Shown here in pieces: positions 1 through 43,797 of a DNA stretch of 43,797 nucleotides. A program made the position numbers and the translations under genes. Every line of letters starts with the position of its first letter. The stretch's first letter is position 1. The stretch is from a virus. The notes under the pieces were generated by a model. The model was not told where the DNA came from, did not search any database, and saw nothing but the letters and a program-made list of their open reading frames with translations. Location of the stretch: IMG/VR virus record IMGVR_UViG_3300045936_000051, positions 1 to 43,797 of that record. The stretch is one strand, 5' to 3'.

Positions 1-30
1 CAGGGCGCGAAGCCGGTGGCTAACAGGTGG

Positions 31-64
31 GGGGGGTACTTGCGACGCGTCATAAGGGGGGTAC
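31..64. repeat. GGGGGGTAC direct repeat near the left edge
   Basis: The nine-base word GGGGGGTAC occurs at 31-39 and 56-64, between the window edge and the end of the first gene. The first 64 bases carry no recognisable gene. G-rich repeats next to a phage genome end can belong to a packaging (cos) region, and the terminase gene lies at the other edge of this window, but nothing here proves a genome end. Confidence 0.4.
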
Positions 65-283
65 CTAGTCGTAAGGGGCGAAGCCGTTGACGAAGCGTTC
101 CCAGTCGTAGGCGTAGACGATCAGCTGCCCCCGTTCGCTGATCGCGCCGGTCTGCCCGTTGAACCAGCGCTGGAAGATTTCCCAGTCGCCTTCGTCCAGG
201 GCGGCGCTGATGTCTTCGACGGCGTAGCCCTTCCAGGCGTCCGTCACGATCAGGGGCAGGACTACGTCGCTTAGCTTCGTCAT
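65..283 (-). CDS. hypothetical protein, 72 aa
   Basis: I do not recognise this family. The protein is soluble-looking, acidic and rich in aromatic residues, with no signal peptide, membrane segment or cysteine cluster. The ATG at 283 is chosen because it forms an ATGA overlap with the stop of the upstream gene (280-282). A longer reading from 334 has no ribosome binding site and would overlap the neighbour heavily. It is the last gene of the leftward accessory operon that starts near 1990, so it is probably translated by coupling with the gene before it. Confidence 0.7.
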   Translation of the reverse strand: MTKLSDVVLPLIVTDAWKGYAVEDISAALDEGDWEIFQRWFNGQTGAISERGQLIVYAYDWERFVNGFAPYD

Positions 284-495
284 GACGTGTAGCGAATGAA
301 GAAATGGGGATAGTCCAGTTCGCCGCATTTGCATTCGACGTCATGGTCGGGGACGTCTTCGGGTCGCGTCCATTCGCGGACGTGACCGCAGGGCAGGGCG
401 ATGCGCAGGAAGGGACCGGAATAGCCACCCCAGTTAACCTTCGCCGCCAGTAGGACGTCGCGATTGGGCGCCGTCATGCCGAAATATGCGTTCAA
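280..495 (-). CDS. small cysteine-containing protein, 71 aa, TTG start
   Basis: Unknown family. The second half holds a PCGHVR element and a later ECKCG element, a spacing compatible with one zinc site (Cys/His/Cys/Cys), so a small zinc-binding fold is possible but unproven. The start is taken as TTG at 495 because an AAGGGGG ribosome binding site (about 502-508) lies at good spacing from it. The ATG six codons later (477) is too far from that site. The binding site overlaps the stop codon of the upstream gene at 507-509. Confidence 0.7.
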   Translation of the reverse strand: MNAYFGMTAPNRDVLLAAKVNWGGYSGPFLRIALPCGHVREWTRPEDVPDHDVECKCGELDYPHFFIRYTS

Positions 496-506
496 TAGCT
501 GCCCCC

Positions 507-722
507 TTACTTCCGGTGAACGGGTCGCCCCGTCTGCCCCTTCCCGACCAGGCGCTTCGAAGCCATTAGCGCGCGCTGGCGCTTCGACCCGCGCTGGCCG
601 AATTGCGCGGCGCGTCGTTGTTGGCGGTTTCGCGGCGGGGATTGCGGCGCTAAAACGCTCGCGATGCGCTCGATTGCATTTGCCAGCAGATCGCCCAGGT
701 CGGGCAGTTGGGGGATCGTCAT
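507..722 (-). CDS. small basic protein, 71 aa
   Basis: Unknown family. The first 25 residues are hydrophobic and acidic (LPDLGDLLANAIERI), and the rest is strongly basic and Gln/Arg-rich, starting with NRQQRRAAQ. That two-part layout suits a small nucleic-acid-binding or protein-bridging factor, but no domain is recognised. The ATG at 722 overlaps the stop of the upstream gene as ATGA (719-722). The open frame runs far upstream of 722, but that part is the shadow of neighbouring genes. Confidence 0.7.
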   Translation of the reverse strand: MTIPQLPDLGDLLANAIERIASVLAPQSPPRNRQQRRAAQFGQRGSKRQRALMASKRLVGKGQTGRPVHRK

Positions 723-967
723 GGGTGCGATTCCCAGCGGGCGCGCAGGGCGCGTATCGAGTTTTCCAGCAACGCCAGACTGGTTTCCAGGGCGACGACC
801 TGCCCGTCGTCCAGTTCGACCGCCATGATGATCGACGGCTTGCCCGACGCCATCCCGTCGCGCAGGCCAGTCATGCGCCAGGTCGTGAAATGGGCGATCT
901 GTTTGCCTTCCCAGTCCGGCCATGCGTCGTCGCCGATCAGGTTTAGCTGGATGCTCGGCATAGTCAT
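719..967 (-). CDS. hypothetical protein, 82 aa
   Basis: Not recognised. The sequence looks like a compact alpha/beta protein: a short first strand (MPSIQLNLIGDD), a central strand-turn region with IIMAVELDDGQVV, and a C-terminal helix (LETSLALLENSIRALRAR). There are no cysteines or membrane segments. The start at 967 (MTMP) forms an ATGA overlap with the upstream stop; the ATG two codons later is the alternative. It sits in the middle of an operon of overlapping small genes, which argues that it is real. Confidence 0.75.
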   Translation of the reverse strand: MTMPSIQLNLIGDDAWPDWEGKQIAHFTTWRMTGLRDGMASGKPSIIMAVELDDGQVVALETSLALLENSIRALRARWESHP

Positions 968-1185
968 GCGGGATGCCCCAGTTCCAGCGACTTACGCGCG
1001 AAGGCGTAGCCGATGGCGACGCGGACCAGCCGCCACGATTCCAGGCATAGACCGACCTCGGCAGGCCGCGCCGGTCGCAGCGCGGGGTCCTGGTCGTGAA
1101 CCAGTTCCAGAACGAACAGGTCCTGGCCGACGGCGCCGCAATGGGCGCAGGCGTTAGCCTGGTACTTGTAGACGACGCTAACCAT
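964..1185 (-). CDS. small CxxC protein, 73 aa
   Basis: Unknown family. A CAHCG element near residues 11-15 resembles half of a zinc ribbon; no second pair is obvious, so zinc binding would need a partner chain or another ligand such as His. The start at 1185 is chosen because a GGGGGTCGGG ribosome binding site lies just upstream. The open frame continues upstream to 1314, but that part has the Arg/Pro-rich look of an out-of-frame shadow of the preceding gene. Overlap with that gene is only eight bases. Confidence 0.7.
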   Translation of the reverse strand: MVSVVYKYQANACAHCGAVGQDLFVLELVHDQDPALRPARPAEVGLCLESWRLVRVAIGYAFARKSLELGHPA

Positions 1186-1744
1186 TTCCCGACCCCCAGG
1201 GACCCGCTGGCGGCGCCAGCGACGGCGGCAGGGATTGCGCAGGGGTAGGGGACGGCAGAACGCCCTGCGGCGCGTCCTGGGCTTCCTGCGCGGCGCTGGA
1301 CCCGTTTCCAGCATGGGGTCCGGCCAGCGGCGGCAGTTCTAAGACGATGTCGCTGAACAGGTCGCGGACCAGGACCTGCGCTTCGATCATCGCGTCGACC
1401 TGCGCGGCGTCGATCTGGGGGTTCAGGGACCGCAGCTTGATCGCGTAGCCGTGACGGAAGCAATGCAGGATTTCCCCCGCCATGCCAGCGCTGATCCCTC
1501 GGTCGACGTAGACGACGACGCAGCGCGCCAGATCGATCCAGGCCAGTTCTGCCGCGATGCCCTGTTCGCGTTCGGCGCCGTCCCCGTCGTCCAGGACCTG
1601 CGGGTATAGCAGATGGGACGCGAACGGCGCTTCGCCGCGCGCCAGCGCGTCGGCCATCGCTTCCTGGGCGTACAGCTTGTTACGGGTCCGTTCCAGGATG
1701 GTCGGCGCCCTGAACGGCGATAGCAGAACGACCGGTTTCGACAT
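1178..1744 (-). CDS. DUF7768-like / nucleoside deoxyribosyltransferase-fold protein, 188 aa
   Basis: Residues 4-125 have the layout of a phage family related to nucleoside 2-deoxyribosyltransferases (I recall it as DUF7768): an opening VVLLSPFRA strand, a helix with TRNKLYAQEAMADAL, a PFASHLLYPQVLDD segment, then the acidic helix and CVVVYVDRGISAGM strand. In that fold these parts form a nucleotide pocket, but catalysis here is not shown. The last 50 residues are Pro/Ala/Gly-rich and probably disordered. The start at 1744 has a strong AAGGGGGAT ribosome binding site. Confidence 0.75.
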   Translation of the reverse strand: MSKPVVLLSPFRAPTILERTRNKLYAQEAMADALARGEAPFASHLLYPQVLDDGDGAEREQGIAAELAWIDLARCVVVYVDRGISAGMAGEILHCFRHGYAIKLRSLNPQIDAAQVDAMIEAQVLVRDLFSDIVLELPPLAGPHAGNGSSAAQEAQDAPQGVLPSPTPAQSLPPSLAPPAGPWGSGNG

Positions 1745-1747
1745 TAG

Positions 1748-1990
1748 TTATCCCCCTTCGTAGTGCGGAAGCTCGCCCAGGGCGACCTGGATGCGGGCGG
1801 GATGCTTCAAATGGCGCGGGCAGAACGGAATCCCGTTGCCCAGTTCGAAGCGCAGGTCCGGCGCGTCATGGATGCGGTCGGCGCTGGCGGCGCGGCTGTT
1901 ACAGGACGGCCATTGACACCAGCCGCCATAGCGCCGCTGGACCATGATTTGCCAGGTCGTTTCGCGGGTGTCGACCGACGTTTGTTGCAT
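1748..1990 (-). CDS. small HNH-like zinc protein, 80 aa
   Basis: The protein holds a CQWPSC pair (about residues 26-31), an RIHDAPDL segment, GNGIPFC and a CPRHLKH end. This recalls the order of a short HNH endonuclease (Cys pair, His-containing strand, Asn, then Cys-x-x-His), but the double His of active HNH enzymes is not seen, so it may be an inactive HNH fold or just a zinc protein. It is the first gene of the leftward operon ending at 65. The ATG at 1990 lacks a clear ribosome binding site. A candidate operator lies at 2000-2008 in its leader. Confidence 0.6.
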   Translation of the reverse strand: MQQTSVDTRETTWQIMVQRRYGGWCQWPSCNSRAASADRIHDAPDLRFELGNGIPFCPRHLKHPARIQVALGELPHYEGG

Positions 1991-1999
1991 CGCCGCATA

Positions 2000-2008
2000 T
2001 GTCCGACA
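2000..2008. promoter_or_regulatory. candidate repressor operator TGTCCGACA
   Basis: A nine-base palindrome (TGTC-N-GACA) lies in the leader of the leftward operon, ten bases from its first ATG. The same palindrome occurs at 6013-6021 and 18743-18751, each time in a promoter region, and I found no exact copy inside a gene. Binding by the repressor at 18852 is inferred. Confidence 0.6.
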
Positions 2009-2024
2009 ACTTGTGTTAACGTAC

Positions 2025-2059
2025 CGCCGTGACGACAATACTAGCTTTTCGTCACGGCG
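2025..2059. repeat. 11-base inverted repeat in divergent promoter region
   Basis: The arms at 2025-2035 (CGCCGTGACGA) and 2049-2059 (TCGTCACGGCG) match perfectly across a 13-base spacer. The spacer contains the -10 element of the leftward promoter. This could be an operator for a dimeric regulator or a hairpin in rightward RNA. It lies between the divergent genes starting at 1990 and 2115. Confidence 0.6.
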
Positions 2060-2066: not shown

Positions 2067-2114
2067 TTTGAGACTTTAACGAGATTTGGCGGACCTGGAA
2101 GGGGAAGGCAACCC

Positions 2115-2492: not shown

Positions 2493-2493
2493 G

Positions 2494-3311: not shown

Positions 3312-3374
3312 AGAGGTAGACTGGGACCAGACCAGGGCTTCGCAGGTGCCTAGACGAAGCGCTGGTCGGTTACA

Positions 3375-3410
3375 GGCCGACGTTCGCTGCGGGGCAGGCG
3401 TCGGCCTTTT
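3375..3410. terminator. hairpin terminator after the 4699-3411 genes
   Basis: GGCCGACG (3375-3382) pairs with CGTCGGCC (3399-3406), followed on the plus strand by TTTT. It directly abuts the stop codon of the leftward gene at 3411 and separates that operon from the next promoter. The T-run favours rightward termination, but the hairpin may act on both strands. Confidence 0.6.
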
Positions 3411-4031
3411 CTATTCGACGTAGCAACCTTCGCGGACGGCGCGAATGATGCGCCCGATTTCCGACCGGTAGCGTTTCAAGCCCAGGCGCCAGTCGGGGGA
3501 ATCGCGCCAGCTTTCCAGGTCGGGGCGCAGCTTGTATTCGACGAAGGCTTCGCCGCCGTTGATTCGATAGGTCCAGGTCGCGCCCGCGTAGACGTCGGCG
3601 TCGAATTCGAAGCAATGCGGTTCCAGGTTGATCCCCTTTTCGGGGCGGCTGGCCTGGTCCAGCGATAGGTCGACCAGGAAGGCGCCGACAACGGCTACGA
3701 CGTGTCCGGCGGGATTCACGCCCTGGGTCGCCAGTTCCCGCATATGTTCTTCCAGGCCGATCCCGATGCCCCAGGCGCCAGCCGCGAAGTCTGCGTCCGT
3801 CGGTAGGCGGTCCGGCGCGATCAGGCCAGCTTCCAGGCGGCGATGGTATTCGGCATTGACGACCAGGGCTTCGACGTTCAGCGGCGCCGCCACGTAGCCG
3901 AAATGATTCAGGACTTCGACGCCGACCCGCGTCATAGCGATACAGCTATCGGGGCGGACCTTTTCCAGCATGATCGGGCGGGCGAATTCGCACAGGCCAG
4001 CGATTACCTGCGTCAGGGTTAGCCGCGTCAT
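3411..4031 (-). CDS. putative papain/transglutaminase-fold protein, 206 aa
   Basis: The family name is not certain, but three segments are in the order of a Cys-His-Asp hydrolase of the papain/transglutaminase fold: Cys30 at the start of a helix (DSCIAMTRVGVEVL), His110 on a strand (GHVVAVV), and Asp121 on the next strand (FLVDLSLDQ). The surroundings fit the fold (helix after Cys; two strands carrying His and Asp). A cysteine peptidase, a transferase or an inactive relative are all possible. No signal peptide. It starts at 4031 in an ATGA overlap with the upstream gene; the two may act together. Confidence 0.65.
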   Translation of the reverse strand: MTRLTLTQVIAGLCEFARPIMLEKVRPDSCIAMTRVGVEVLNHFGYVAAPLNVEALVVNAEYHRRLEAGLIAPDRLPTDADFAAGAWGIGIGLEEHMRELATQGVNPAGHVVAVVGAFLVDLSLDQASRPEKGINLEPHCFEFDADVYAGATWTYRINGGEAFVEYKLRPDLESWRDSPDWRLGLKRYRSEIGRIIRAVREGCYVE

Positions 4032-4699
4032 TTCGACCAGCGCCGCATGACGCGCCCGATTTCGTGTTCTTCGAACAGGCCTTCGCCGAAGTTGTGAACG
4101 GCGGCGCGGCGCGCCGCCCGCCGCATCGAAAACGTATCGCCGATGCCCAGGTCCTGGGCGGCGCCATCGAACATGCCCCCCAGGGCGACCGTTTGCGCGA
4201 CCCCATGCCAGAATTCGCCGAAGGTCCAGTCTTCGACGTGTTCGCCCGTCTGCCATTCCCTAGGCGGCGCCCAGCGTAGCTTCCCCTTCCGGCGCTTGAA
4301 AACCTGAACGACCATTCCCGCAGGCGATTCGGTTGGCGTCAGTTCCATTACCTGGATCGCCGACTGCCGGTCGGGGCGTTCGCTGGGCGGGACCAGGTCG
4401 CCGCGCCGGAATGCCGCAATGCGTTCCTGGACGTCGGCGTCGGTCCCGCTGAATTCTTCCTGGGCGATCCACATTTCGACCGCGACATAGATACGCTGCG
4501 CGTCCAGGCCGAAGCCCAGCAGACCGCCTAGGCTTCGCATGGTCTGGCGCCGCTGCCGGTGGTCGCCCCAGTAGGGGTTTGCGTCGAAGAACATCGGCGG
4601 GTCGTCGGCGCCTTCGATCACAACCAGGGGATGCAACGGACCGTTGGCGCGGACCCGACGCGCGACGGCCAGCAGATGGTTTCGGTAGTCCGCGCTCAC
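4028..4699 (-). CDS. hypothetical protein, 223 aa
   Basis: Not recognised. It is a mixed alpha/beta soluble protein with a first helix (YRNHLLAVARRVRANG), a strand (LHPLVVIEGADD), an extended middle with AQRIYVAVEMWIA, and a basic helical C-terminus. The segment IYVAVEMWIAQEEF followed by an SAIQVMEL strand looks like a beta-sheet core. It forms an ATGA overlap with the Cys-His-Asp protein downstream and with the gene upstream (4696-4699), so these genes are made from one message. The start at 4699 is the only one consistent with those overlaps. Confidence 0.7.
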   Translation of the reverse strand: MSADYRNHLLAVARRVRANGPLHPLVVIEGADDPPMFFDANPYWGDHRQRRQTMRSLGGLLGFGLDAQRIYVAVEMWIAQEEFSGTDADVQERIAAFRRGDLVPPSERPDRQSAIQVMELTPTESPAGMVVQVFKRRKGKLRWAPPREWQTGEHVEDWTFGEFWHGVAQTVALGGMFDGAAQDLGIGDTFSMRRAARRAAVHNFGEGLFEEHEIGRVMRRWSK

Positions 4700-6170: not shown

Positions 6171-6323
6171 CTACGCTGCGGGCGTTTCCGGCGCCTGGGG
6201 CGCTTCCGCCGCCTGGTCGCCTTCGCCTTCCGCCTTTTCTTCGTCGCCCTCGGCTTCCGACTTTTCCGCGTCCTTCGCGTCTTCGTCGGTCGGGGGCGTC
6301 TGCCCTGGGGTCGTGTTAACCAT
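6171..6323 (-). CDS. small acidic, disordered protein, 50 aa
   Basis: The protein is made almost entirely of Glu, Asp, Ala, Lys, Gly and Pro, with no hydrophobic core, so it is probably disordered. It starts at 6323 behind a GGAAGGAAGG ribosome binding site and lies 60 bases past the integrase stop on the same strand, so it is probably co-transcribed with the integrase. Nothing in the sequence shows its role. Its position makes an integrase helper, a DNA mimic or simply a lysogen-expressed accessory protein possible; all of these are guesses. Confidence 0.6.
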   Translation of the reverse strand: MVNTTPGQTPPTDEDAKDAEKSEAEGDEEKAEGEGDQAAEAPQAPETPAA

Positions 6324-6383
6324 GTTTGCCTTCCTTCCAGCTAAGCGCCCCGACCGCCCCATGACGGTCGCGGGCGTTGAATC

Positions 6384-7904
6384 TTACGCCAGGACGCCGA
6401 CGGCGCCGACCCGCGCCGCCAGCTTTTCGTAGACGTCGGTTCGCAGGCTAACCTGGGCGACTTCGGCGTCGACGTCGATGCGGTCGACGGTCGCGCGAAT
6501 TAGGTCCCGCCAGCCTTCGACCGTGACGGCGCTTAGGTCCCGCAGTTCCGCCGTCAGCGCCAGAACGTCGTCAAGGTCGGCCATCGGGCGAACGTCGACC
6601 AGATCGGCCAGTTCGGTTTCGACGGTCCGTAGCTGGGCGGCATAACGGGCGTCCTGCGCCCTGAACAGGTCGACGTCGATGGCGCCGCGCATGACCAGAT
6701 CGGCGCCGTTCAGCCGCGCGCCTTCCAGCTTTTGCTTCGACGCTTCCAGCGACTTTTTGCGGACCTGCGCGGCGTCCAGCGCGTCGTCGCCCATCGCTTC
6801 CAGTTCGCGCAGGGCGGCTTCGCGGTTGTCGCCGACGAAGATGCGCAGGACCTTCGCGACGGTCGCCTTAACCTGATCGTCCAGCTTGAAAACCGCGACG
6901 TAGTTCTGGTCGCAGGTCCCGCGCAGGTTGCGCTGGGGGCAGTAGTAAAACGCGCCGCCGTTGCCGTTCGACTTGCCCTGGATGCGGGCGCCGCACTTGC
7001 AAAAGATCGACCCGACCAGTAGCTGGCGCTGCGCCGGACGGGGCGCCTTCGCCGTCTGGTTGCGCCCCAGAACGACCTGAACCGCGTCGAACGTAACCTG
7101 CGGGACGATGGGGTCGTGGTCGCCCTGATAAATGCCCCAGTCGGCCTTCGCTTGCAGGTTCAGATGGCGTTTGCCGTCGGCGCCGTACTGTTTCTTCCGG
7201 CGACCCCAGACCAGCTTCCCGACGTAGGACTGATTCGTCAGCATTCGGCTAAGGTTCGACTTCGACTGGCCGTTGCCCAGACCCAGGACGGCGGCTTCGC
7301 GCGCCAGTTGCGTCAGGCCGTATTTGCCGGTCGCGTACAGGTCGAACAGGCGAAGGACCTTCCAGGCCGTATCGGGGTCCTGTTCCAGACGGCGCCCGCC
7401 TTCGGGGTGCGCGACGATGCGATAGCCCAGGGGGGCGCGACCGATCCAGCGGCCAGATTCCAGACGGGCGCGCTGGTTCGGGACGACGCGGGCGCTGATC
7501 TTGCGGGTTTCTTCCGCCGCCATGCCGATCATGATCGAAACCATGAAACGGTTCGTCACGTCCTGCGTCGCCGACCGCAGCTTGACGCCGTAGACGTCGA
7601 AGTCGCGCATCAGGCTAAAGAATTCCAGTTCGTCGCGGCTGATACGGTCCAGCGCCCAGACGACGACCGTGTCGACCTGACGGGCGGCGACCATCGCCTT
7701 AAGCCGCAGGTATTCGGGGTTGTCATTGTCGCGCCCCGACTTCGCTTCGTCGCGAAGGACCGCCGTGATCTTCCCGCCGTTGCGGTCGGCGTAGGCGGCG
7801 GACTCGCGTTCCTGGGTATCAAGCGAGACGTGATCTTTACCGACCTGCCCCCAGCTTGAAACCCTCACGTAGTTGACGGTCCGCCCGAATGATTCCGTTT
7901 GCAA
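6384..7904 (-). CDS. int: large serine recombinase (integrase), 506 aa
   Basis: This is the phage integrase, which joins attP to the host attB by serine-mediated strand exchange. The N-terminal resolvase domain (about 1-145) has YVRVSS with the likely catalytic Ser16 next to Arg14, and VVWALDRISRD with Arg87 and Arg90. A recombinase domain follows (about 150-290), then a zinc ribbon with Cys302, Cys304, Cys322 and Cys331, and a coiled-coil region (about 370-450). The length fits the family. It starts with TTG at 7904 behind GGAAGGGGAT and is driven by the GGTCACA promoter at 7926-7996. The matching directionality factor is not identified. Confidence 0.95.
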   Translation of the reverse strand: MQTESFGRTVNYVRVSSWGQVGKDHVSLDTQERESAAYADRNGGKITAVLRDEAKSGRDNDNPEYLRLKAMVAARQVDTVVVWALDRISRDELEFFSLMRDFDVYGVKLRSATQDVTNRFMVSIMIGMAAEETRKISARVVPNQRARLESGRWIGRAPLGYRIVAHPEGGRRLEQDPDTAWKVLRLFDLYATGKYGLTQLAREAAVLGLGNGQSKSNLSRMLTNQSYVGKLVWGRRKKQYGADGKRHLNLQAKADWGIYQGDHDPIVPQVTFDAVQVVLGRNQTAKAPRPAQRQLLVGSIFCKCGARIQGKSNGNGGAFYYCPQRNLRGTCDQNYVAVFKLDDQVKATVAKVLRIFVGDNREAALRELEAMGDDALDAAQVRKKSLEASKQKLEGARLNGADLVMRGAIDVDLFRAQDARYAAQLRTVETELADLVDVRPMADLDDVLALTAELRDLSAVTVEGWRDLIRATVDRIDVDAEVAQVSLRTDVYEKLAARVGAVGVLA

Positions 7905-8203: not shown

Positions 8204-8278
8204 TGGTTGCAGCGGGCGGAATCGAACCGTCCGTCTGGGGATTAAGAGTCCCCGATCCTACCTTTAGACGACGCTGCA
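8204..8278 (-). tRNA. tRNA-Lys (anticodon CTT), CCA encoded
   Basis: The 75-base gene folds into a full cloverleaf: acceptor TGCAGCG/CGCTGCA, D stem GTCT/GGAT, anticodon stem GGGGA/TCCCC with loop CTCTTAA (anticodon CTT, reading AAG), a T-loop TTCGATT, discriminator A and an encoded CCA. The T stem has one A-C mismatch. It lies between two leftward protein genes and is probably cut from their message. Confidence 0.92.
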
Positions 8279-13165: not shown

Positions 13166-13488
13166 AGGAACCCCACCATGTTTTCGATCTGCAACCGGAC
13201 GTCGCTGGCGGCTTTACTACGCCCGCATCCCGAATTGCGGCTGGACGGGCAGCTAATCGCCAGGTACAGCGGACCGGTCGTTTCGCCGCCGCGCTTCGCC
13301 GCCGACTTCCGGAAGCGGAAGCAATGGATCGGGTCGCCGCAATGGACGCAGGTAACGACCATCCCCGACGCCCTGCCGACCAGGTCGACGGGCGGGCGCA
13401 GTTCCAGGCCGCGCTTATGCCGGACGCGCAGATAGGGCAGGAAGGCGCGGAAGTCGGGACCCAGCCACCAGGCCGTCGACGTCGTCAT
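13162..13488 (-). CDS. zinc-ribbon-like protein, 108 aa
   Basis: The middle carries CVHCGDPIHCFRFR, and further on CPSSRNSGCGRSKAAS, giving two cysteine pairs for one zinc site separated by a 30-residue insert. The N-terminus is aromatic (AWWLGPDF) and the end is short and hydrophobic. In context (between a DNA methyltransferase and an ATPase-associated protein, with ATGA overlaps at both ends) it is probably a nucleic-acid-binding accessory protein. Family not recognised. Confidence 0.75.
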   Translation of the reverse strand: MTTSTAWWLGPDFRAFLPYLRVRHKRGLELRPPVDLVGRASGMVVTCVHCGDPIHCFRFRKSAAKRGGETTGPLYLAISCPSSRNSGCGRSKAASDVRLQIENMVGFL

Positions 13489-14072
13489 AGCGCCACGTCC
13501 TGAAACGCTTCGTTACCCCAGGTCGCCCAGCCCAGACGCTGGCGCCGCGCGAACAGTTCCAGATAGGGACCAGGCGACGTCGCTTCGACCAGGTCGTAAA
13601 AGACGTCGGGTTTCGACGAATGCCCGCCAGGTCCGCGCGGCGCGACGAAGGCCAGCCCGTCGCCATCGCATTCGGTTTCGAAGACGTTGGGGCGGCGGTT
13701 GCTGGGCGGGACCGGCAGGCGCCCCCTGACGCCAAATAGGACGTGTTCCGTCTTCCCTCGGAAGTAGAATCCCAGGCCGACCTGACGCTTAACCCAGGTT
13801 AGGCACGTCTTATAGACGAACCCCCAGGCCTTCATTAGGTCGTTGGGGTTGATCGAATCGTCGTCGCGTTCCCCGTACAGACGCGGGTTCGTAACCCACA
13901 AATACAGGTGCGCGTCGTCCGCCGCCAGGTCGCCGACCGGCAGCGCCAGGATGTCGCGGTTCGTCATGGTCGGGTAGTTGTCTTCGGCGGTCCGCCCGCC
14001 ATGCGTCGACGGCGGCAGCGTCCCAGGTCCATAGCGCCAGGGCGGGTCGATAACCAGCGTCGCGTATTTCAT
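13485..14072 (-). CDS. MT-A70 family DNA adenine methyltransferase, 195 aa
   Basis: The family transfers a methyl group from S-adenosylmethionine to N6 of adenine. The catalytic DPPW is at residues 9-12, just after an opening strand (YATLVID), followed by HLYLWVTNPRLY (motif of the central sheet), AWGFVYKTCLTWVK, and a C-terminal SSKPDVFYDLVEATSPGPYLELFARR segment with the usual P-E/Y-L-E-L-F-A-R end. All family landmarks are present, so it should be active. It is an orphan enzyme with no nuclease beside it. Its target site is unknown; protection from host restriction or marking of phage DNA is the common explanation. Confidence 0.93.
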   Translation of the reverse strand: MKYATLVIDPPWRYGPGTLPPSTHGGRTAEDNYPTMTNRDILALPVGDLAADDAHLYLWVTNPRLYGERDDDSINPNDLMKAWGFVYKTCLTWVKRQVGLGFYFRGKTEHVLFGVRGRLPVPPSNRRPNVFETECDGDGLAFVAPRGPGGHSSKPDVFYDLVEATSPGPYLELFARRQRLGWATWGNEAFQDVAL

Positions 14073-20345: not shown

Positions 20346-20420
20346 AGCGGCGTCGTTCAACGGTAGGACGCGGGACCGCAGACCCCGAAATGGATCGTTC
20401 AACTCGGCCCGCCGCTGCCA
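20346..20420 (+). tRNA. tRNA-like gene, anticodon GCA (Cys), with unusual anticodon loop
   Basis: A 75-base cloverleaf can be drawn: acceptor AGCGGCG/CGCCGCT, D stem GTTC/GGAC with an AACGGTA loop, T-loop TTCAACT, discriminator G and an encoded CCA. The anticodon stem CGGGA/CCCCG has an A-C pair at the loop end, and the loop CCGCAGA has C at position 33 where tRNAs have U, and G at 37. Its discriminator G does not fit tRNA-Cys (U73). It may be a degenerate or repurposed tRNA. Confidence 0.7.
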
Positions 20421-30117: not shown

Positions 30118-33080
30118 ATGTAGGCTCCCCGTCGTTGCATTTCTTCCTGAACGCCCCAGCCGATGGTCCGCAGACCCTGCGACGGCTTCATGGGGACCAT
30201 TTCGATAGGACCGAAGGAATTGACGACGATCCCGCCAGCGGCGCGACCGCCAATCGGCGCCAGGACGTTGTTAGCGGCGTCGCCCGCCGGTCCAGAACCG
30301 GCGCCAGCGCGGATGCCGCCGAAGCTGGACCGCGTAATGTTCGGCGCCATCCAGTCCTGCGTCATATCGCCAATCGCGGCGCTATAGCCGCTTAGCTGCG
30401 TCTGGACCGGCGCCCAGCCTGCGGCCAGCCCGTTCGCCAGACCTTCCATGATCAGCTGCCCCGCTGGGTACAGCAGCTTCCGGTCCTCTTCCGGCGGTCC
30501 CTTCCAGTTCGGGATCAATTTCTTGACGCCGCCCAGGACGTCCTTAAGGTTGGGAAGCGCGTCCTTTATGCCCCTGATCAGGCCGTTGATCACGTCCTTA
30601 CCAGCGCCGGTTAGGAAGTCCTTCGCGCCGTTGAACGCGCTTTTAAGCGCGCCTGGGATGCCGAAACCGCCCTTCGCCGAATCCAGCGCCGCGTTGAACG
30701 GCGCGACGACCAGGTCCTTAACGCCCTTCCAGGCGCCGCCCAGGAAGTCCAGAACCGACCCGAAGGCGTCTTCCAGCGCCGACCGGATACCGAACGCGTC
30801 CGTCGCCAGCGCGACCAGCGGGAAGAACGGTCCGCTGATCAGGCTCGCGACTTCCGGCCAGTTGTTTTTCAGGAAGCCCAGGACGTCGCCCAGGGCGTCC
30901 AGAACCCCGTCCTTGACGCCGTTAACCAGGCCGACGATTTTGTCCCAGTTCTTCCAGGCGACATAGGCGGCGACGACCGCCAGCGTGATCGCGCCGATCA
31001 CCAGCAGCAGCGGACCCAGCGAAATGCTCAGACCGCCGAACGCCAGCGCCAGCAGGCCGATGCTGCCGATCAACGGACCGATCACGGCGGCGAAGCCGAC
31101 CAGTCCGACGACGATCATCTGGACCGGTCCAGGCAGGGATGCGAAGGCCATCGCCATATCCGCCGTCAGGTTCACTACAGGCTGAACGTCGGTAATGAAT
31201 TGTTTCAGCATGGGGACCAGTTCGCCGCCGACAATCGACGCGTTATTCGTCATGCTGTTATTGAGCATTTGCATTTGCGACGCCAGCGTTTCGTTGGCGA
31301 TGCCGGACTGCCGCGTCAGTTGGTTCGTCGTCGGGTACTCTTCGCGGGCGACGCGCAGATGATCTTCGATCTTGATGGCGCCGTCGGCGACGCTGTTCTG
31401 GCCGCGCGCCAGACGCGTCAGGGCGTCGATTTCGCGGACTTCCTGGATGCCCAGGTCGCGCAGGGTTTGGTAGACGTTGCCGCCCTCTTTATCGATGCGC
31501 GCCAGCCCGTTGATAACGGCCAGGGTCGCGTCGGCGGAATTCTTGTTGAACAGGTCGGCGAAGGCCTCGCGCGACATCCCTGCCAGCTTCGCGTACTTGC
31601 CCAGCTTGTTATTGGCCGAATCCGTCAGTCCGTTCAGCAGCTTCTGGGCGCTGGCGTACTGGTCGGAAGAACGGGTCGCTTTCTTATTCGCTTCGTCGAC
31701 GCCTTCGTAAGCGTCACGCTGTCGGCGTTTGGCGTCGTTTGTGCCTTCGATGGCGTTGCGCTTATTGCGTTCGGCCTGCGTGACTTGCCGTTGCGCCCGA
31801 TCTTCGTCTTCCGCCGCCCGTTTCGCCGTCGCGCCCTGTTGACTGATCGCGTCGACGACGCCCAGCCGCGCCCGCTGGACGTCCAGTTGGTAGCCGCGTT
31901 GCTGAACCGCCAACTGGTTCATTCGCTGATAGGCCTGCGCCAGGTTCAGTTCGGCGCGGACGACGTCGTTTGGCTTCCCGTCTCGCCGCGCTTTGTTCAG
32001 GCGTTCCTGCGCTTCCGCGACCCCGATCTGGGCGGCTTTCATATCCAGCGCTAGGGACGGCGCCCGCGATAGGACTTCGTCCAGCCGTTGCTGGGCTTCC
32101 ATCAGCGATAGGGTTTCGCGGCGGGTGTCGATGCTCGCCATAACCTGATCGCGCTGGGCGTCGGCCAGGTTCTTATAGGCGTCTTCCAGGTCCAGGTTGG
32201 CGTCGCTGACGGCTTCGTTGGCGTCGCGGACGCCGCGCCCAGCGTCGGCGACTTCCTCGTGCGCGTCGCGGACGCTGCGCTGGGCTTCGACCAGGGCGTC
32301 GCCACTGTCGCGGACTTTCAGGTTCGCCTGGGCGATCTGTTCCAGGGTTTCCGCGCTGGGCGCCAGTCCCATGACGGCTTCGTTGATGCTGATAACGGTT
32401 TTGCTGAACGCCGTCCCGCCCGCTTCCGGTTCCAGGTTCAGGTTTACCATCGCGTTCGCGAAGGCCAGGATGTCGGGCGTATGCATGCGCGCCGTCGCGC
32501 CTGCGGCGGCGATGCGGACCGCCATATCGGTAATGTTCGAAGCTTCGGACCTGCCGATGCCTTCCAGCGCCAGGATCGTCGACCCGATGTTGGCGAATTC
32601 CTTCGTCGAAGCGCCGACGATGTTGGCGAAACCAGAAATCGACTTCGCGGCCTGTTCAGCCGTCATGTCGGTGGTCTGCGCCATCTGGATCATCGTCTTC
32701 GCGAAGCCCAGGGCGTCTTCGCCCGCGACGCCTAGCTGTCCGGCGGTTTTAACCAGGTCCAGGATGTCGGCGGTCGACGCGGGAAGCTCCGTCGACATCT
32801 GACGGGCGCCGTCCAGGATTTGCTGGAAGAATTCGGGCGTCCCCTTCATCTTCATCTGGACGCCCGCCATCGCCGTATCGATGTCCATTGCGGACTTAAG
32901 GGCGAACGCCGTGAACCCCGTGATAGGGACCGTCAGGGCGGCGGTTAGACCGGCGCCCAGCTTGGTTAAGGAACCCGTGATCCCCGATAGGCCGCGCGTG
33001 ATCCCGTCGCCCGCTTCGCTACCGAATTTCGATAGGTCTGGGCGTAGGGTTACGAATGCTTCGCCGATGGGGTTAGCCAT
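30114..33080 (-). CDS. tail tape measure protein, 988 aa
   Basis: The tape measure sets tail length, about 1.5 angstrom per residue, so this 988-residue protein predicts a tail near 150 nm. The start (GEAFVTLRPDLSKFGSEAG) is the usual small-tape-measure opening. A hydrophobic phage tail domain (about 40-70), long charged coiled-coils (about 280-500), hydrophobic membrane-like segments (about 640-720: IVVGLVGFAAVIGPLIGSIGLL, LLLVIGAITLAVVAAYVAW) and a Gly-rich C-terminal part follow. No peptidase or lysozyme domain is evident. It starts at 33080, where the frameshifted chaperone extension ends. Confidence 0.93.
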   Translation of the reverse strand: MANPIGEAFVTLRPDLSKFGSEAGDGITRGLSGITGSLTKLGAGLTAALTVPITGFTAFALKSAMDIDTAMAGVQMKMKGTPEFFQQILDGARQMSTELPASTADILDLVKTAGQLGVAGEDALGFAKTMIQMAQTTDMTAEQAAKSISGFANIVGASTKEFANIGSTILALEGIGRSEASNITDMAVRIAAAGATARMHTPDILAFANAMVNLNLEPEAGGTAFSKTVISINEAVMGLAPSAETLEQIAQANLKVRDSGDALVEAQRSVRDAHEEVADAGRGVRDANEAVSDANLDLEDAYKNLADAQRDQVMASIDTRRETLSLMEAQQRLDEVLSRAPSLALDMKAAQIGVAEAQERLNKARRDGKPNDVVRAELNLAQAYQRMNQLAVQQRGYQLDVQRARLGVVDAISQQGATAKRAAEDEDRAQRQVTQAERNKRNAIEGTNDAKRRQRDAYEGVDEANKKATRSSDQYASAQKLLNGLTDSANNKLGKYAKLAGMSREAFADLFNKNSADATLAVINGLARIDKEGGNVYQTLRDLGIQEVREIDALTRLARGQNSVADGAIKIEDHLRVAREEYPTTNQLTRQSGIANETLASQMQMLNNSMTNNASIVGGELVPMLKQFITDVQPVVNLTADMAMAFASLPGPVQMIVVGLVGFAAVIGPLIGSIGLLALAFGGLSISLGPLLLVIGAITLAVVAAYVAWKNWDKIVGLVNGVKDGVLDALGDVLGFLKNNWPEVASLISGPFFPLVALATDAFGIRSALEDAFGSVLDFLGGAWKGVKDLVVAPFNAALDSAKGGFGIPGALKSAFNGAKDFLTGAGKDVINGLIRGIKDALPNLKDVLGGVKKLIPNWKGPPEEDRKLLYPAGQLIMEGLANGLAAGWAPVQTQLSGYSAAIGDMTQDWMAPNITRSSFGGIRAGAGSGPAGDAANNVLAPIGGRAAGGIVVNSFGPIEMVPMKPSQGLRTIGWGVQEEMQRRGAYI

Positions 33081-36187: not shown

Positions 36188-36402
36188 TAGGGCGCCGTCG
36201 CTTCCGGTTCAGGCAGCGTCAGGCGATGGTTGCCAGCGTGGTTAGGCGGCATGACGCAGGTCCCGTTCCCGACGGGGAAGCCGCATAGGGCTTCCGCCGC
36301 CGTCGTCGGGACGCCAGGTTCGCCGAAGACGATGTCGTCGCCGCGCGCCAGTTCACCTTCCGGCAGTTCCTTTAGTTGCTGGGGATGCTTGCCGAACCCC
36401 AT
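36187..36402 (-). CDS. hypothetical protein after the capsid gene, 71 aa
   Basis: A small protein with an ELPEGELARGDDIVFGEPG start, a single Cys pair (CGFPVGNGTCVMPPNHAGNHRLTLPEPE) and a His. The Cys...Cys...His arrangement is similar to a small zinc protein recurring in actinophages. The ATG shares a base with the capsid stop (TAATG at 36400-36404), so it is translated with the capsid gene. Role unknown. Confidence 0.7.
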   Translation of the reverse strand: MGFGKHPQQLKELPEGELARGDDIVFGEPGVPTTAAEALCGFPVGNGTCVMPPNHAGNHRLTLPEPEATAP

Positions 36403-37355
36403 TACGGCGCCGCCGCAGTGAAGTCGATCAGGACCGCGCGGCAGTTCTTCCCCGTCAGGGCGCCGGTCGCGGGGTTGCGTTCGTCGGCGACGCTGGCGGC
36501 GCCAGCGAAGGACGAATAGATCGACCGGTCGCGCAGGAAGTTTGCATCGTAGTCCCTGATCCAGCGCATCGTCAGATTTTCGAACGTCAGGCTGGCGCCC
36601 GCGCTGGCGCCGCTGGGGACTTCCGGCGCGACGTTGGCGAAGACGAAGGCGCTGGGGTGAAACGCGATGGCGAAGTCCGGCGGCAGGGACTGGACGTTGC
36701 CGATCACGCTGAAACCGGCCACGTTGCCGATGATGCCCTGGCGCAGGGCGTCCGTTGAACCGCTGTCCTGGTAGCGCCGGAAGCCCTCTTCCTTAAGCGC
36801 CGCCGCTTCGACCGTCGACCCCAGGGCGATCACGCGACCGGCGGCTGGGACCTTCGCATCGTTCAGCGCCTTACGCGCGTCGACCGCCGCCCGATGGAAC
36901 GGCGCGCCAGCGCCCGCCGCGTCTTCGGCGTAGGCGATGGGGGCGTGAGAGTACAGTGTCAGCGGGTCCGTCATGACGTCGGCGATGTAGCTTTCCAGCA
37001 GTTCGGCGACGGCGATGATCTGGGGTTCCGCGACCTGGGTTCCCCAGTCGCGAATGTCCAGCGTCATTTCTTCGTCGGTAATCGGGACCGCCGAATAGGG
37101 ATGCTTGTCCAGCTTTACGGGGATCGACTCTTCGACAATCGTGTCGTAGGTGATCGGCGCGGTGCGGGTCCGCCATTCGTATTCGCGGGCGGTTAGCAGC
37201 GCAGGGACGCGAACGTTAACCGTGTCGTCCTTCGCGCCGCGAAAATCGTCGATGCCCATGCGGGCGACCAGGCGCGGCAGGATCAGTTCCCGCCGCAGGA
37301 TGCCCAGACCCATCGATACGATCTGTTCTGCGCTTAGGAATTCGTTAGGGGGCAT
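36402..37355 (-). CDS. major capsid protein, 317 aa
   Basis: The capsid shell subunit of the HK97 fold group. Features: SAEQIVSMGLGILRRELILPRLVARMGIDDF (N-arm helix), YEWRTRTAPITYDTIVEESIPVKLDKHPYSAVPITDEEMTLDIRDWG (E-loop and strands), LLESYIADVMTDP, AVDARKALNDAKVPAAGRVIALGSTVEAAAL (spine helix) and GFSVIGNVQSLPPDFAIAFHPSAFVFANVAPEVPS. The size is typical for a protein without a large protease delta domain. Its CGAGG ribosome binding site, unlike most genes here, probably reflects high expression. Confidence 0.92.
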   Translation of the reverse strand: MPPNEFLSAEQIVSMGLGILRRELILPRLVARMGIDDFRGAKDDTVNVRVPALLTAREYEWRTRTAPITYDTIVEESIPVKLDKHPYSAVPITDEEMTLDIRDWGTQVAEPQIIAVAELLESYIADVMTDPLTLYSHAPIAYAEDAAGAGAPFHRAAVDARKALNDAKVPAAGRVIALGSTVEAAALKEEGFRRYQDSGSTDALRQGIIGNVAGFSVIGNVQSLPPDFAIAFHPSAFVFANVAPEVPSGASAGASLTFENLTMRWIRDYDANFLRDRSIYSSFAGAASVADERNPATGALTGKNCRAVLIDFTAAAP

Positions 37356-38211: not shown

Positions 38212-38220
38212 AAAAGGAAA

Positions 38221-40449: not shown

Positions 40450-40718
40450 TAGTCGGGGTCGGTCGTTTCGAAGCCACGATCCAGGGCGCCTTCGATGTAG
40501 CGCGCCAGTCCCATCCCGACGATTTCGTCGGCGTAGTGCGAATGCAGCATGATCGCCGTCGGGTCGTCGGGCGTCCCCCGCTTTTCGACCCAGACGATCA
40601 ACCAGTGACCGACGCGGTCGGCGTCGCGATGCGCCTGGATCATGCCCAGGGCTTCCGCCAGGTCGGACCCGCGCGCGGCTTCGCGGAAGGCGCCTAGGGG
40701 GTCGTCGGCGTCCGGCAT
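40449..40718 (-). CDS. hypothetical protein, 89 aa
   Basis: Unknown. It opens with an acidic helical part (DPLGAFREAARGSDLAEALGMIQAHRDADRV), then HWLIVWVEKRG, a short strand-turn region with AIMLHSHYADEIVG, and an acidic end. A TAATG overlap couples it to the portal gene (40718) and to the membrane protein downstream. In many siphoviruses a small protein of unknown role follows the portal gene. The longer open frame upstream is a shadow of the portal. Confidence 0.75.
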   Translation of the reverse strand: MPDADDPLGAFREAARGSDLAEALGMIQAHRDADRVGHWLIVWVEKRGTPDDPTAIMLHSHYADEIVGMGLARYIEGALDRGFETTDPD

Positions 40719-42043
40719 TACTGCCCGCCTGGGGGAAGCTGACGCGGCGGGTTGTTGCCCATGCTGCGTTCCAGCAACCCCGCCAGACCAGCCATCGGGT
40801 CCAGTTCTTCGGCGGCTTGCTTCCAGCGCTCGATTTCGCCCTGGGAAGTGTTCGGTATACGTTCCCATAGGGCTTGTGGCGGGATGCCCAGTTGCGACGC
40901 CATCTTGCCCAGCGCGTCGACGGTCGCGGCCAGGGCGCGGGATTCCGTGTCGCGCCAGCGGATTTCGGCGTTGTCGTCCGGCGCCTGCCCGTTTAGCTCG
41001 CCCGCCAGCGCCAGCGTCTGTTCCCAGGATTCGCCGAAGCTAACCTGGCGTTCGACGATCTTGCGTCGCTGCCCAGCTTCCGCCGCGACCAGGGCTTCGG
41101 CGGATAGGTTGATCAGCGCGCCCGTAAGCTCGTGAATAGGTGTCTGGGACAACGTAGCCGCCTGCCGTAGGCTCGATTCGCGCGAATCCAGGTATCCGTC
41201 CAGCGACGCCTGTTCAAATTCGCCGACCTTGACGTCGTCCGGCGAGTCTTCGAACGTCAGCATTCGCGCCGCGTTCGCCTTGATCAGGGCTTCCTCAGAC
41301 TCAGCCGCCCACCCTATCGCCCAGCGCTGGCGAAATGCCTGGTAATGCTGGGCGACCAGCAGACCGAAGGTCGTGATGTCGATCTGGTCCTGTAGTTCGA
41401 CCAGCGGTTCGACTTCGCCCTGATTGTCTTCGTCCAGGTCCTGGACGTTCAGGAAGCGGACGACGGGGCAGACGCCCGCGTCGTGTTCCTGGAAGCCCAG
41501 ATATTCCGGCGCCGACTTCGACCGTTCGGCGAATAGGTAGACGGCTTCGGCGTCATACAGGCGGACCGTCTTATCACTGTCCGACCGCAGCGCCCAGACC
41601 GGCCAGTAGGGGTCGTCGACGTCGTAAAGCGTCGTCATGTTGCGCGGCGAGTAACCGCGTATGACCGGCAGGGGTTCCCCAGGCAGGATCGACGTGTAGG
41701 CGGTCCCATACGTCAGGGCGGCGCGGTGAACGCCGATCTGTCCGGCGTCCAGGGCGTTCGCCTGCCAGATGTCCCAGGCGGCGGCGTTGTCTTCGTCCCT
41801 GGGGGCGCGGTAGCCGTCGACGTACAGCGCCTGCGCCAGCGAATTGACGACGATTTGCATGACGTTGACGCGGGCGATCTTCGCCAGGGTGCGGACTTCC
41901 AGCGGCGATCCCTTCGGGACGGCGACGTTGGGTTGCCTGCCCCTGACGTACTCGTGAATCTTGTTTAGCTGGCGGCGTTCGGCGTCTCGATAGCCCAGCA
42001 TGACGCGCGCCTGTTCGACTGCGGCTTCGGGGGATAACGGCAT
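40718..42043 (-). CDS. portal protein (SPP1 gp6-like), 441 aa
   Basis: The portal is a ring at one vertex of the head through which DNA is packaged. Family features: HEYVRGRQPNVAVPKG, KIARVNVMQIVVNSLAQALYVDGY (clip-core segment), QANALDAGQIGVHRAALTYGTAYTSILPG, RLYDAEAVYLFAERSK, VPLVELQDQIDITTFGLLVAQHYQAFRQRW, DGYLDSRESSLRQAATLSQTPIHELTGALINLSAEALVAAEAG and a C-terminal Gly/Pro tail. Length fits the type. It starts at 42043, two bases after the previous stop. Position next to terminase is as expected. Confidence 0.92.
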   Translation of the reverse strand: MPLSPEAAVEQARVMLGYRDAERRQLNKIHEYVRGRQPNVAVPKGSPLEVRTLAKIARVNVMQIVVNSLAQALYVDGYRAPRDEDNAAAWDIWQANALDAGQIGVHRAALTYGTAYTSILPGEPLPVIRGYSPRNMTTLYDVDDPYWPVWALRSDSDKTVRLYDAEAVYLFAERSKSAPEYLGFQEHDAGVCPVVRFLNVQDLDEDNQGEVEPLVELQDQIDITTFGLLVAQHYQAFRQRWAIGWAAESEEALIKANAARMLTFEDSPDDVKVGEFEQASLDGYLDSRESSLRQAATLSQTPIHELTGALINLSAEALVAAEAGQRRKIVERQVSFGESWEQTLALAGELNGQAPDDNAEIRWRDTESRALAATVDALGKMASQLGIPPQALWERIPNTSQGEIERWKQAAEELDPMAGLAGLLERSMGNNPPRQLPPGGQ

Positions 42044-42045
42044 CG

Positions 42046-42225
42046 CTACGCCCCCCTGCGGAACCAGCGCGACGGGATCACGACGTTCAGCAACGCCAGT
42101 CCCAGCGCCAGGAAGCAAAAGGCCAGGACGACGACGTCGACGCCCTTTTCGACGGGATCGACGACGTCGATGGCGCGCAGGAAGAACAGGAAAGCGGCTA
42201 ACAGGAATAGGACGATGCTAGCCAT
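42046..42225 (-). CDS. membrane microprotein with two predicted helices, 59 aa
   Basis: This short gene was read directly from the sequence. Two hydrophobic stretches (ASIVLFLLAAFLFFLRAI and VDVVVLAFCFLALGLALLNVVI) are separated by a short charged turn (DVVDPVEKG) and followed by a basic end. It lies between terminase and portal genes and has an AAGGGGG ribosome binding site upstream of the ATG at 42225. Possible roles include a membrane anchor or a holin-like pore; none is proven. Confidence 0.75.
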   Translation of the reverse strand: MASIVLFLLAAFLFFLRAIDVVDPVEKGVDVVVLAFCFLALGLALLNVVIPSRWFRRGA

Positions 42226-42230
42226 CGGCG

Positions 42231-42281
42231 GGGTCCCCCTTTGTCAACTTAGCGGACGTGGATTGTCAACCTGGGGGACCC
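42231..42281. repeat. inverted repeat enclosing two TGTCAAC words
   Basis: GGGTCCCCC (42231-42239) pairs with GGGGGACCC (42273-42281). Between them TGTCAAC occurs at 42242-42248 and 42264-42270, 22 bases apart. On the minus strand the words read GTTGACA, like -35 elements, but no matching -10 was found at normal spacing. It may be a hairpin, a regulator site or a partial terminator after terminase. Confidence 0.5.
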
Positions 42282-42291
42282 GCCCAGGCCG

Positions 42292-43797
42292 TTACAGCGC
42301 CATCATACGACCGGTCCGTTTGCGATGCCGCTTCGATCTCGGCAAGCCCAGCCAAAGGCGCCGCAGCATACGGGCGCCGACCGCGCAGACCGCCAGGTCG
42401 ATTTTGTAGTTCGACGACGGATGATCCTTCGAAATCGCGACGCCGTAGGCGTTCGGGCGGCGTTTGGCGTTAGTGACGTGTTCGCGCAGGACGGGATGGC
42501 CGTCATGCGTCAGGTTGCCGTCCTGGATATCGGTCGCCGTCGCTTCGCAGGCTTCCGTAAACAGGCGCTGGCGCAGTCCCTTCGACGTCCCCGACATATC
42601 CCATTTGACGGCGTGACGGTCGGCGCCGGACTCGGACGCCCATAGGTCCAGTTCGGCGCCGTAGGTCGCGGACCATCTGTCGATCAGGGGGTACCAGTAG
42701 CGTTCGCCTTCGTCGTCCTTCCCGCTGCCAGGGTCCGCCCAGAACGCGCGGACGTCGTAGTTGGCGAAGACGCGGTCGACGATGTCGGCGACTTCCTGAC
42801 GCGGGACGGTCCATTCAGCCACGCCCGCCGGTCTGCGCCAGACCCCGAACGTCCAGACGTGGCCGTCGTCGATCCTACAACCGACCAGGCCGGTCGCGTC
42901 GTCGGACTTCGACCCGTCGAAGAACAGGGTTATCTGGTCGTCTTCGGCCAGTTCGCGTTCGTCGTCGCGGCAGGCGTCCCATTCGTAGGGGCGAACCCAG
43001 GCGTCTTCGGCGACTACCAACTGGTTCAAATAGAACCGGCGCGCTTCGCTGGGCGGGGTGTCGGGGTCGTGGATTTCGTCCAGGATGCGGTCGATCTGGA
43101 CCCAGGTCGAATTCCCGTAGACCAGCCGCAGGCCGTCGGCCAGGTCGTCGTCGTCGTAAAGGTTGGTTTCCGGCGGCGCCTCGCGGCTGTCGTAAAGGAT
43201 CGTCGACCCCCGCGCGCGCCCCGTCCGCTGGGCTTCGAAGGCCAGATAGGACCGTTCGGCGACCGATTCCTGCCCCATTTCGTGCGCGTTCGTCGTTTCG
43301 CAGGACCGCGCCAGCCCATCGCGCGACTTGCCCAGGTTGCGGCGGATCGTCTCGGCAAACTTGATCAGGCCGTCGGCAGGCTTCCAAAGGTGGGTTTCAT
43401 CTAACACGACAAACGTCGGGCGCGCGCCCTCGGTCGTCGACCCCGAAGACGTGATCGGTTCCAGCTTGCCGCCGCCAGCAGTGAAGATGCGCGTCAGTCC
43501 CAGGTCCAGGCGGTAATCGCTGACGGCGGGGGATTCTTCCAGCATCGCCAGGACCATCGCCATAGTGTTATTCGTCTGGGCGATGCTGAACCCCGCGATC
43601 TGGACCAGCGGCAGGGGGACCGGTCGCCCGACGGGGTTCCCGTCGGCGTCGTCGCGCCAGTAGCGGACCGGTCCCAGGAATTCGGCGATGGCGATAGCGG
43701 CCATAAACGGCGACTTTCCCCAGCCCTTCGCCCGCCGCAGGACGGCGCGCGTATACAACCAGCGCCCGCGTTCGTCGACGGCGTAGAAATGCCAAAG
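42292..43797 (-). CDS. terminase large subunit (5' end outside the window), 501 aa visible
   Basis: The packaging motor, with an ATPase and a nuclease. The visible chain starts mid-protein with FYAVDERGRWLYTRAVLRRAKGWGKSP, where RRAKGWGKS is the unusual Walker A, and continues with VVLDETHLW (Walker B). The RNase H-like nuclease has acids in LFFDGSKSDD, AFWADPGSGKDD and YKIDLAVCAVG. The frame stays open through the window edge, so the true start lies beyond 43797. It is followed by a membrane microprotein and the portal in the usual order. The small subunit is not in the window. Confidence 0.93.
   Translation of the reverse strand, partial: LWHFYAVDERGRWLYTRAVLRRAKGWGKSPFMAAIAIAEFLGPVRYWRDDADGNPVGRPVPLPLVQIAGFSIAQTNNTMAMVLAMLEESPAVSDYRLDLGLTRIFTAGGGKLEPITSSGSTTEGARPTFVVLDETHLWKPADGLIKFAETIRRNLGKSRDGLARSCETTNAHEMGQESVAERSYLAFEAQRTGRARGSTILYDSREAPPETNLYDDDDLADGLRLVYGNSTWVQIDRILDEIHDPDTPPSEARRFYLNQLVVAEDAWVRPYEWDACRDDERELAEDDQITLFFDGSKSDDATGLVGCRIDDGHVWTFGVWRRPAGVAEWTVPRQEVADIVDRVFANYDVRAFWADPGSGKDDEGERYWYPLIDRWSATYGAELDLWASESGADRHAVKWDMSGTSKGLRQRLFTEACEATATDIQDGNLTHDGHPVLREHVTNAKRRPNAYGVAISKDHPSSNYKIDLAVCAVGARMLRRLWLGLPRSKRHRKRTGRMMAL

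What the first reader, a model, noticed from the sequence alone, without database searches (positions are those of the whole stretch)
1..43797. Near-absence of GAG/CTC trinucleotides in both strands and all frames
Two 600-base samples counted by eye gave 0 (3421-4020) and 2 (30121-30720) occurrences of GAG plus CTC, where about 20 would be expected if bases were independent at roughly 63% GC. Because both strands, several gene types and out-of-frame positions are affected, codon preference for GAA and CTG alone does not explain it. Most ribosome binding sites use GGAAGGGGAT, with G-U pairing at the position where a GAG would occur. This is strong selection against a very short word, as might come from a host restriction, BREX-like or phosphorothioate-based system, or from a phage DNA-processing protein that reads GAGGA.
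Basis: partly seen in the sequence, partly recalled or inferred. Interest (0 to 1): 0.85.

Follow-up and report, generated by a model that had tools for sequence, protein, structure and literature searches.

The report
Phage genome nearly lacking GAG/CTC
A probably temperate phage genome has purged about nine tenths of one three-letter DNA word (GAG and its complement CTC), in every reading frame and on both strands, together with many longer restriction-type words, which suggests its hosts attack DNA by recognising unusually short sequences.

Summary
GAG+CTC occur 175 times against 1,434 expected from dinucleotides (O/E 0.12); GTG/CAC is second (0.33). Both are low on both strands, in all codon phases and between genes. 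At fixed protein and codon usage, out-of-frame GAG/CTC is 0.13 of synonymous shuffles. Serine codons switch with their neighbour (AGY 4% after ..G, 52% otherwise; relatives 28% and 28%). Codon preference and sequencing error are excluded; a single mutation bias is unlikely. 634 bases of the same virus outside the window hold 0 GAG/CTC (23 expected). About 155 homologous phage loci lack the effect, and pattern counts in about 650 cellular genomes found no GAG-poor host. Many longer words are absent: CCSGG 0 (171-220 expected), CGGCCG 0/58, GCCGGC 0/44, GCAGCC 0/50, RGATCY 0/33, while CCWGG (484) and GATC (272) remain abundant. Best reading: long-term selection at the DNA level against sites read by host DNA-targeting defences, with a G-W-G core (strongest GAG) as an unusually short target. 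The agent is inferred; the host and the protein reading GAG are unidentified. Restriction-site avoidance is the nearest known kind; a 3-bp determinant in a phage with an integrase is unusual.

The parts
1..43797 (.). Whole window: GAG/CTC (175 places) and GTG/CAC (422) depleted on both strands and in all frames; evenly spread
6249..7803 (.). Longest stretch (about 1.55 kb) between successive GAG/CTC words; most of it lies in the integrase gene
3313..4695 (.).
13485..14072 (-). MT-A70 family N6-adenine methyltransferase (195 aa, DPPW motif present), the only DNA-modifying enzyme recognised
   Evidence: Pfam PF05063 E 3e-19; phrog_359 DNA methyltransferase E 5e-48; PADLOC Type II MTase E 5e-46; PDB MT-A70/METTL chains
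6384..7904 (-). Large serine recombinase/integrase (506 aa): phage probably temperate
   Evidence: Pfam Resolvase, Recombinase, Zn_ribbon_recom; phrog_95 integrase E 1e-75
42292..43704 (-). Terminase large subunit (best isolate relatives at 43-47% identity are mostly Arthrobacter phages)
   Evidence: phrog_9, tblastn, L002 100% identical
40718..42043 (-). Portal protein
   Evidence: phrog_104 E 2e-112
36402..37355 (-). Major capsid protein (relatives at up to about 61% identity, normal GAG)
   Evidence: phrog_283
8204..8278 (-). tRNA-Lys(CTT) next to the integrase
   Evidence: ARAGORN, Rfam RF00005 49.8 bits

Best explanation
The genome has been shaped over a long time by selection, acting on double-stranded DNA, against short sequences read by host DNA-targeting defences (restriction-modification or a similar system). 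Longer sites that would be cut (CCSGG, CGGCCG, GCCGGC, CGATCG, RGATCY and others) have been removed completely. Shown: the depletion, its independence of frame, strand and protein, and the parallel elimination of longer words. Inferred: that a host defence is the agent. Unknown: the host, and whether one reader of GWG or several readers sharing a GAG core is responsible.
For: GAG/CTC and GTG/CAC are low in all three codon phases and on both strands, between genes, and out of frame when protein and codon usage are held fixed: CTC 0.10, GAG 0.18, GTG 0.19, CAC 0.44 of synonymous shuffles, z -16 to -20. Codon choice changes with the neighbouring base: Ser AGY 4.1% after ..G and 51.6% otherwise, TCN 12.9% after ..C and 84.1% otherwise; relatives show 27.7/28.3% and 67.7/74.7%. 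31 six-base words with expectation of 8 or more are absent, where 0.02 would be by chance. Sites are discriminated finely: CCSGG 0 (171-220 expected) while CCWGG is 484 (150-342 expected); RGATCY 0 and CGATCG 0 while GATC occurs 272 times. Bipartite words are eliminated too: CAGN6TGG 0/37, GCCN5GGC 2/48. About 155 homologous phage loci lack the GAG effect (lowest 0.66), so it is not inherited from the family or forced by GC. Recognition-site avoidance by prokaryotic viruses is established (PMC6286503).
Against: No known restriction enzyme or defence that I know of reads three bases (own knowledge; one search tested only sites of 4 or more bases). 175 sites remain, so a nuclease that cuts every GAG would still cut this DNA. 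The phage has an integrase; the survey in PMC6286503 found eliminated sites mainly in non-temperate phages, and avoidance only for orthodox Type II sites, not Type I or IIG. No host, host methylome or defence gene could be tied to it.
Confidence: 0.55

Rival explanations
1. Union of many sites: GAG is low because the phage meets many hosts whose asymmetric adenine-methylating systems (Type IIL/IIG, III, BREX, Type I half-sites) often contain or end in GAG, CAC or similar; no single 3-bp reader exists.
For: Several other asymmetric words are low (GCAGCC, CCAAG, AGAAG, GACAG, CTGRAG). Control actinophages avoid 4-5-base words, some containing GAG: Attoomi CGAG 0.10 by base composition, AGAGG 0.14; L044 AGGAG 0.05, GCGAG 0.09.
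Against: All 16 NGAGN contexts are low (0-0.29 of relatives) and, relative to the GAG average, flanks differ little except GGAG; a union should leave some contexts free.
Confidence: 0.25
2. A neutral, context-dependent mutation or biased-repair process in the phage or host destroys GWG words, as very-short-patch repair shifts words in E. coli (recalled).
For: Symmetric between strands, all frames, even along the genome. Low CTTGG (5 against 91) with high CCWGG resembles a short-patch-repair signature.
Against: No single substitution fits: compared with relatives, CTC loss goes with more CTG and CTA but fewer CTT; GAG with more GAA; GTG with more GTC. Six-base palindromes are eliminated while sister words are kept. 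CTAGG is not low.
Confidence: 0.1
3. Depletion is a property of the host chromosome that the phage shares (composition matching).
For: The signature is uniform along the window, as if the gene pool it exchanges with had it too.
Against: 251 Chloroflexota and 396 Actinomycetota genomes screened by pattern count; outliers followed up had ordinary GAG. Host phylum is not known, so this is not excluded.
Confidence: 0.07
4. Escape from CRISPR-Cas by PAM loss.
For: PAM depletion in phages is reported (PMC4246573, PMC12174588). GAG is listed among weaker I-E PAM variants.
Against: The I-E consensus AAG (O/E 1.17) and the I-C word TTC (1.30) are not depleted. Losing nearly all PAMs is not needed to escape single spacers (inference).
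Confidence: 0.03

Closest known systems
Restriction-site avoidance by prokaryotic dsDNA viruses (Rusinov et al. 2018, PMC6286503)
   Same: Words read by restriction systems are missing on both strands and in all frames; elimination to zero occurs
   Different: Known cases concern mostly orthodox Type II sites, with elimination mainly in non-temperate phages; here a 3-bp asymmetric core is depleted, Type I-like bipartite words and asymmetric words are lost too, and the phage carries an integrase
PAM depletion in phages (Kupczok and Bollback 2014, PMC4246573; Ortega-Sanz et al. 2025, PMC12174588)
   Same: Selection against a 2-3-base word in a phage genome
   Different: The best-known PAM words (AAG, TTC) are not low here
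Actinophages Arthrobacter phage Emotion (OQ709216) and Streptomyces phage Attoomi (MG593801)
   Same: Homologous terminase and/or portal; many absent six-base words (34 and 14) with expectation of 8 or more; Attoomi has low CGAG
   Different: No trinucleotide-level loss of GAG (O/E 1.39 and 0.87)
IMG/VR locus L040/L049 (71% GC phage, portal 26% identical)
   Same: Another S-W-S trinucleotide, GAC/GTC, is depleted in all phases (O/E 0.29; synonymous shuffle 0.32)
   Different: Different word and weaker effect

Membership tests
Restriction-site avoidance in phages | Word depleted on both strands independent of coding frame | tested here: met
Restriction-site avoidance in phages | Word is the recognition site of a restriction system of the host | not testable with these tools
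   Host unknown; no 3-bp restriction site known to me
Restriction-site avoidance in phages | Related phages without that host pressure lack the depletion | tested here: inconclusive
   Relatives lack it, but their hosts' systems are unknown
BREX-like defence target | Fixed asymmetric site of about 6 bp | tested here: not met
   Depletion holds for all flanks of GAG, not one 6-bp word
Dnd/Ssp phosphorothioate target | Depletion of GAAC/GTTC, GATC, GGCC or CCA type words | tested here: not met
   GAAC/GTTC 1.85 and GATC 1.92 by base composition; CCA O/E 1.44; GGCC is low (0.38), but it is also an ordinary restriction palindrome
CRISPR PAM depletion | Depleted word equals the PAM of a CRISPR system in the host | not testable with these tools
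   Host unknown; common PAM words AAG and TTC are not low
Codon-usage bias | Depletion only in frame 0 and only on the coding strand | tested here: not met

The most novel reading that the evidence does not exclude
A host carries a so far undescribed DNA-targeting defence whose recognition core is only three bases (GAG, with GTG as a weaker variant and flanking G/C helping), tolerates some sites and acts by density, so that phages escape by global depletion of the word; other phages (L040, GAC/GTC) may face relatives of it with another three-base core.
Probability: 0.25. Interest if true: 0.85.

Novelty: new variant of a known kind. Interest (0 to 1): 0.6.

Why it matters
Avoided words in phage genomes are traces of host defences. 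A three-base word purged ninefold in all frames implies either a defence with an unusually short target or exposure to very many defences sharing one core. Both could be tested once the host is found. It also sits badly with the view, drawn from a survey of known phages, that temperate phages rarely eliminate sites and that only orthodox Type II sites are avoided.

Tried and rejected
(1) Sequencing or assembly error: L002, a separate IMG/VR contig, is 100% identical over 5,288 bases, reading frames are long, and Leu, Glu, Val and His counts are ordinary. (2) Codon bias: rejected. (3) Avoidance of Shine-Dalgarno-like words in mRNA: rejected as the main cause, since CTC on the coding strand is lower than GAG and non-SD contexts such as CGAGT are low too. 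An altered anti-SD tail (GGATCCCCTTCC) that would pair perfectly with GGAAGGGGAT was considered; canonical pairing with G-U also works and no 16S with that tail was found in 21 genomes; left open, not needed. (4) Host signature: pattern counts in 251 Chloroflexota and 396 Actinomycetota genomes, outliers read: none. (5) Other phages found by the ribosome-binding-site pattern: 43 hits, about chance, lowest GAG O/E 0.33 in a 5-kb contig. (6) Close relatives through integrase, AAA ATPase or tail protein: none in IMG/VR. (7) Genomes with the capsid gene in Actinomycetota and Chloroflexota: few, normal GAG. (8) MT-A70 gene as the cause: 36 phage loci with homologous enzymes show no comparable GAG depletion.

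Full report
Observation. The two hand counts are exact, and the full count confirms the claim. GAG+CTC occur 175 times in 43,797 bases at 65.0% GC. O/E is 0.108 from base composition and 0.122 from dinucleotides, the lowest of all 32 complementary word pairs. GTG/CAC is second (0.26 and 0.33). No other pair is below 0.72 by the dinucleotide model. The depletion is even along the window. 634 bases of the same virus beyond the window end, on contig L002, hold no GAG or CTC where 23 are expected, so the window is a fragment and the property continues.

Not codon usage. Depletion holds in all three codon phases on the coding strand for all four words and, more weakly, between genes. Shuffling synonymous codons genome-wide while keeping every protein and the codon usage leaves out-of-frame counts at 0.18 (GAG), 0.10 (CTC), 0.19 (GTG) and 0.44 (CAC) of the shuffles, at z -16 to -20. 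Serine codons show it directly: AGY is 4.1% after a codon ending in G (which would make G|AG) and 51.6% otherwise; TCN is 12.9% after a codon ending in C and 84.1% otherwise; in relatives the two conditions hardly differ. In frame, CTC (Leu, six codons) falls furthest and GAG and CAC (two-codon amino acids) less, as expected if selection is limited by available synonyms (inference).

Which word. Compared with 70 related loci of like GC, all 16 NGAGN contexts are at 0-0.29, lowest for GGAGN; GGAGG is absent (0 against 136). GTG is low mainly as GGTG or GTG followed by G or C; CGTGA is near normal (0.8). The core is therefore G-W-G with A preferred and G/C flanks helping. Relatives of the terminase, portal, capsid and methyltransferase genes show no such loss: lowest GAG O/E 0.66 among about 155 loci, apart from the identical contig L002. 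Among 240 loci checked, no other has any trinucleotide with expectation of 100 or more as low. However, the AT-only word TAA/TTA reaches 0.11 in synonymous shuffles of other high-GC phages, so strong trinucleotide loss as such is not unique.

More than GAG. The window also lacks many longer words. 31 six-base words with expectation of 8 or more are absent where 0.02 would be by chance. Known restriction sites at zero include CCSGG (0; 171-220 expected), CGGCCG (0; 58), GCAGCC (0; 50), GCCGGC (0; 44), CGATCG (0; 59 by the window's own model, 38 from relatives), RGATCY (0; 33) and BstXI CCAN6TGG (0; 15), with CCGCGG at 1 (39-53). Bipartite words CAGN6TGG (0/37), CAGN5TGG (1/37) and GCCN5GGC (2/48) are nearly gone as well. 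Close sister words stay common: CCWGG 484, GATC 272 sites. Among controls, Arthrobacter phage Emotion has 34 absent words and Streptomyces phage Attoomi 14, Thermobifida phage P1312 only 2; the median of 48 loci of about 20 kb is 1. Multi-site avoidance thus exists in other actinophages; the trinucleotide-level GAG loss was not seen in them.

What the virus is. Siphovirus-type head genes related at 40-60% to actinophages and uncultured viruses, a large serine integrase (6384-7904), RecT-like and RusA-like proteins, an amidase, two predicted tRNAs and an MT-A70 N6-adenine methyltransferase (13485-14072). The host is unknown. The nearest cellular capsid match is a Dehalococcoidia MAG contig at 57%, then Streptomyces. 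Pattern screens of 251 Chloroflexota and 396 Actinomycetota genomes found no GAG-poor genome.

How it most likely works. Shown: selection-like, frame-independent, strand-independent loss of short words, with complete loss of several restriction-type words. Inferred: the agent is host defence acting on double-stranded DNA. A mutation bias would need several unrelated substitutions at once (CTC to CTG and CTA but not CTT, GAG to GAA, GTG to GTC) and would not spare sister sites. An RNA-level agent would have to read both a word and its complement. Not shown: which system. A nuclease that cuts every GAG would still find 175 sites, so either the cost per site is small or flanks matter. A union of many asymmetric sites with a GAG core remains the main rival.

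Compared with what is known. The survey of Rusinov et al. (PMC6286503) establishes site avoidance in phages but found it mostly for orthodox Type II sites, not for Type I or IIG, with elimination mainly in non-temperate phages. PAM depletion is known (PMC4246573, PMC12174588), but the common PAM words AAG and TTC are not low here. I therefore rate this a new variant of a known kind, with an open possibility of a new short-target defence.

Noticed in passing
L040 1-16537 (IMGVR_UViG_3300009162_000008) and identical stretch L049: A 71% GC phage with GAC/GTC depleted in all phases (O/E 0.29; out-of-frame synonymous shuffle 0.32): a second S-W-S trinucleotide loss, in a distantly related phage.
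   Followed up: partly
window 1-43797: TAA/TTA and other TA words are about threefold commoner than in related phages (468 against 144), where TAA/TTA is otherwise strongly avoided.
   Followed up: no
window 1-43797: CCWGG is threefold over-represented (484 sites) while CCSGG is absent; CTTGG is nearly absent (5 against 91).
   Followed up: partly
L236 (Arthrobacter phage Emotion, OQ709216) and L239 (Streptomyces phage Attoomi, MG593801): Both isolates lack many restriction-type and bipartite words (Emotion: GGATC 0 against 79, CGAN6TCG 1 against 46; Attoomi: CGAG 0.10 by base composition, CAGN6TGG 2 against 43), suggesting avoidance of Type I-like sites, which the 2018 survey did not find.
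   Followed up: partly
L223 1-20000 (a Chloroflexota genome, G183): CAC/GTG is low (0.27 by base composition) in a cellular genome, mostly in frame, so partly codon usage.
   Followed up: no
window 20346-20420: tRNA-Cys predicted by ARAGORN with an unusual T arm; not reached by the Rfam tRNA model at its cut-off.
   Followed up: no
window 43797 end; L002 1-634: L002 (metagenome 3300049733) is identical to the window over 5,288 bases and extends it by 634 bases, so the window is an incomplete virus genome.
   Followed up: yes
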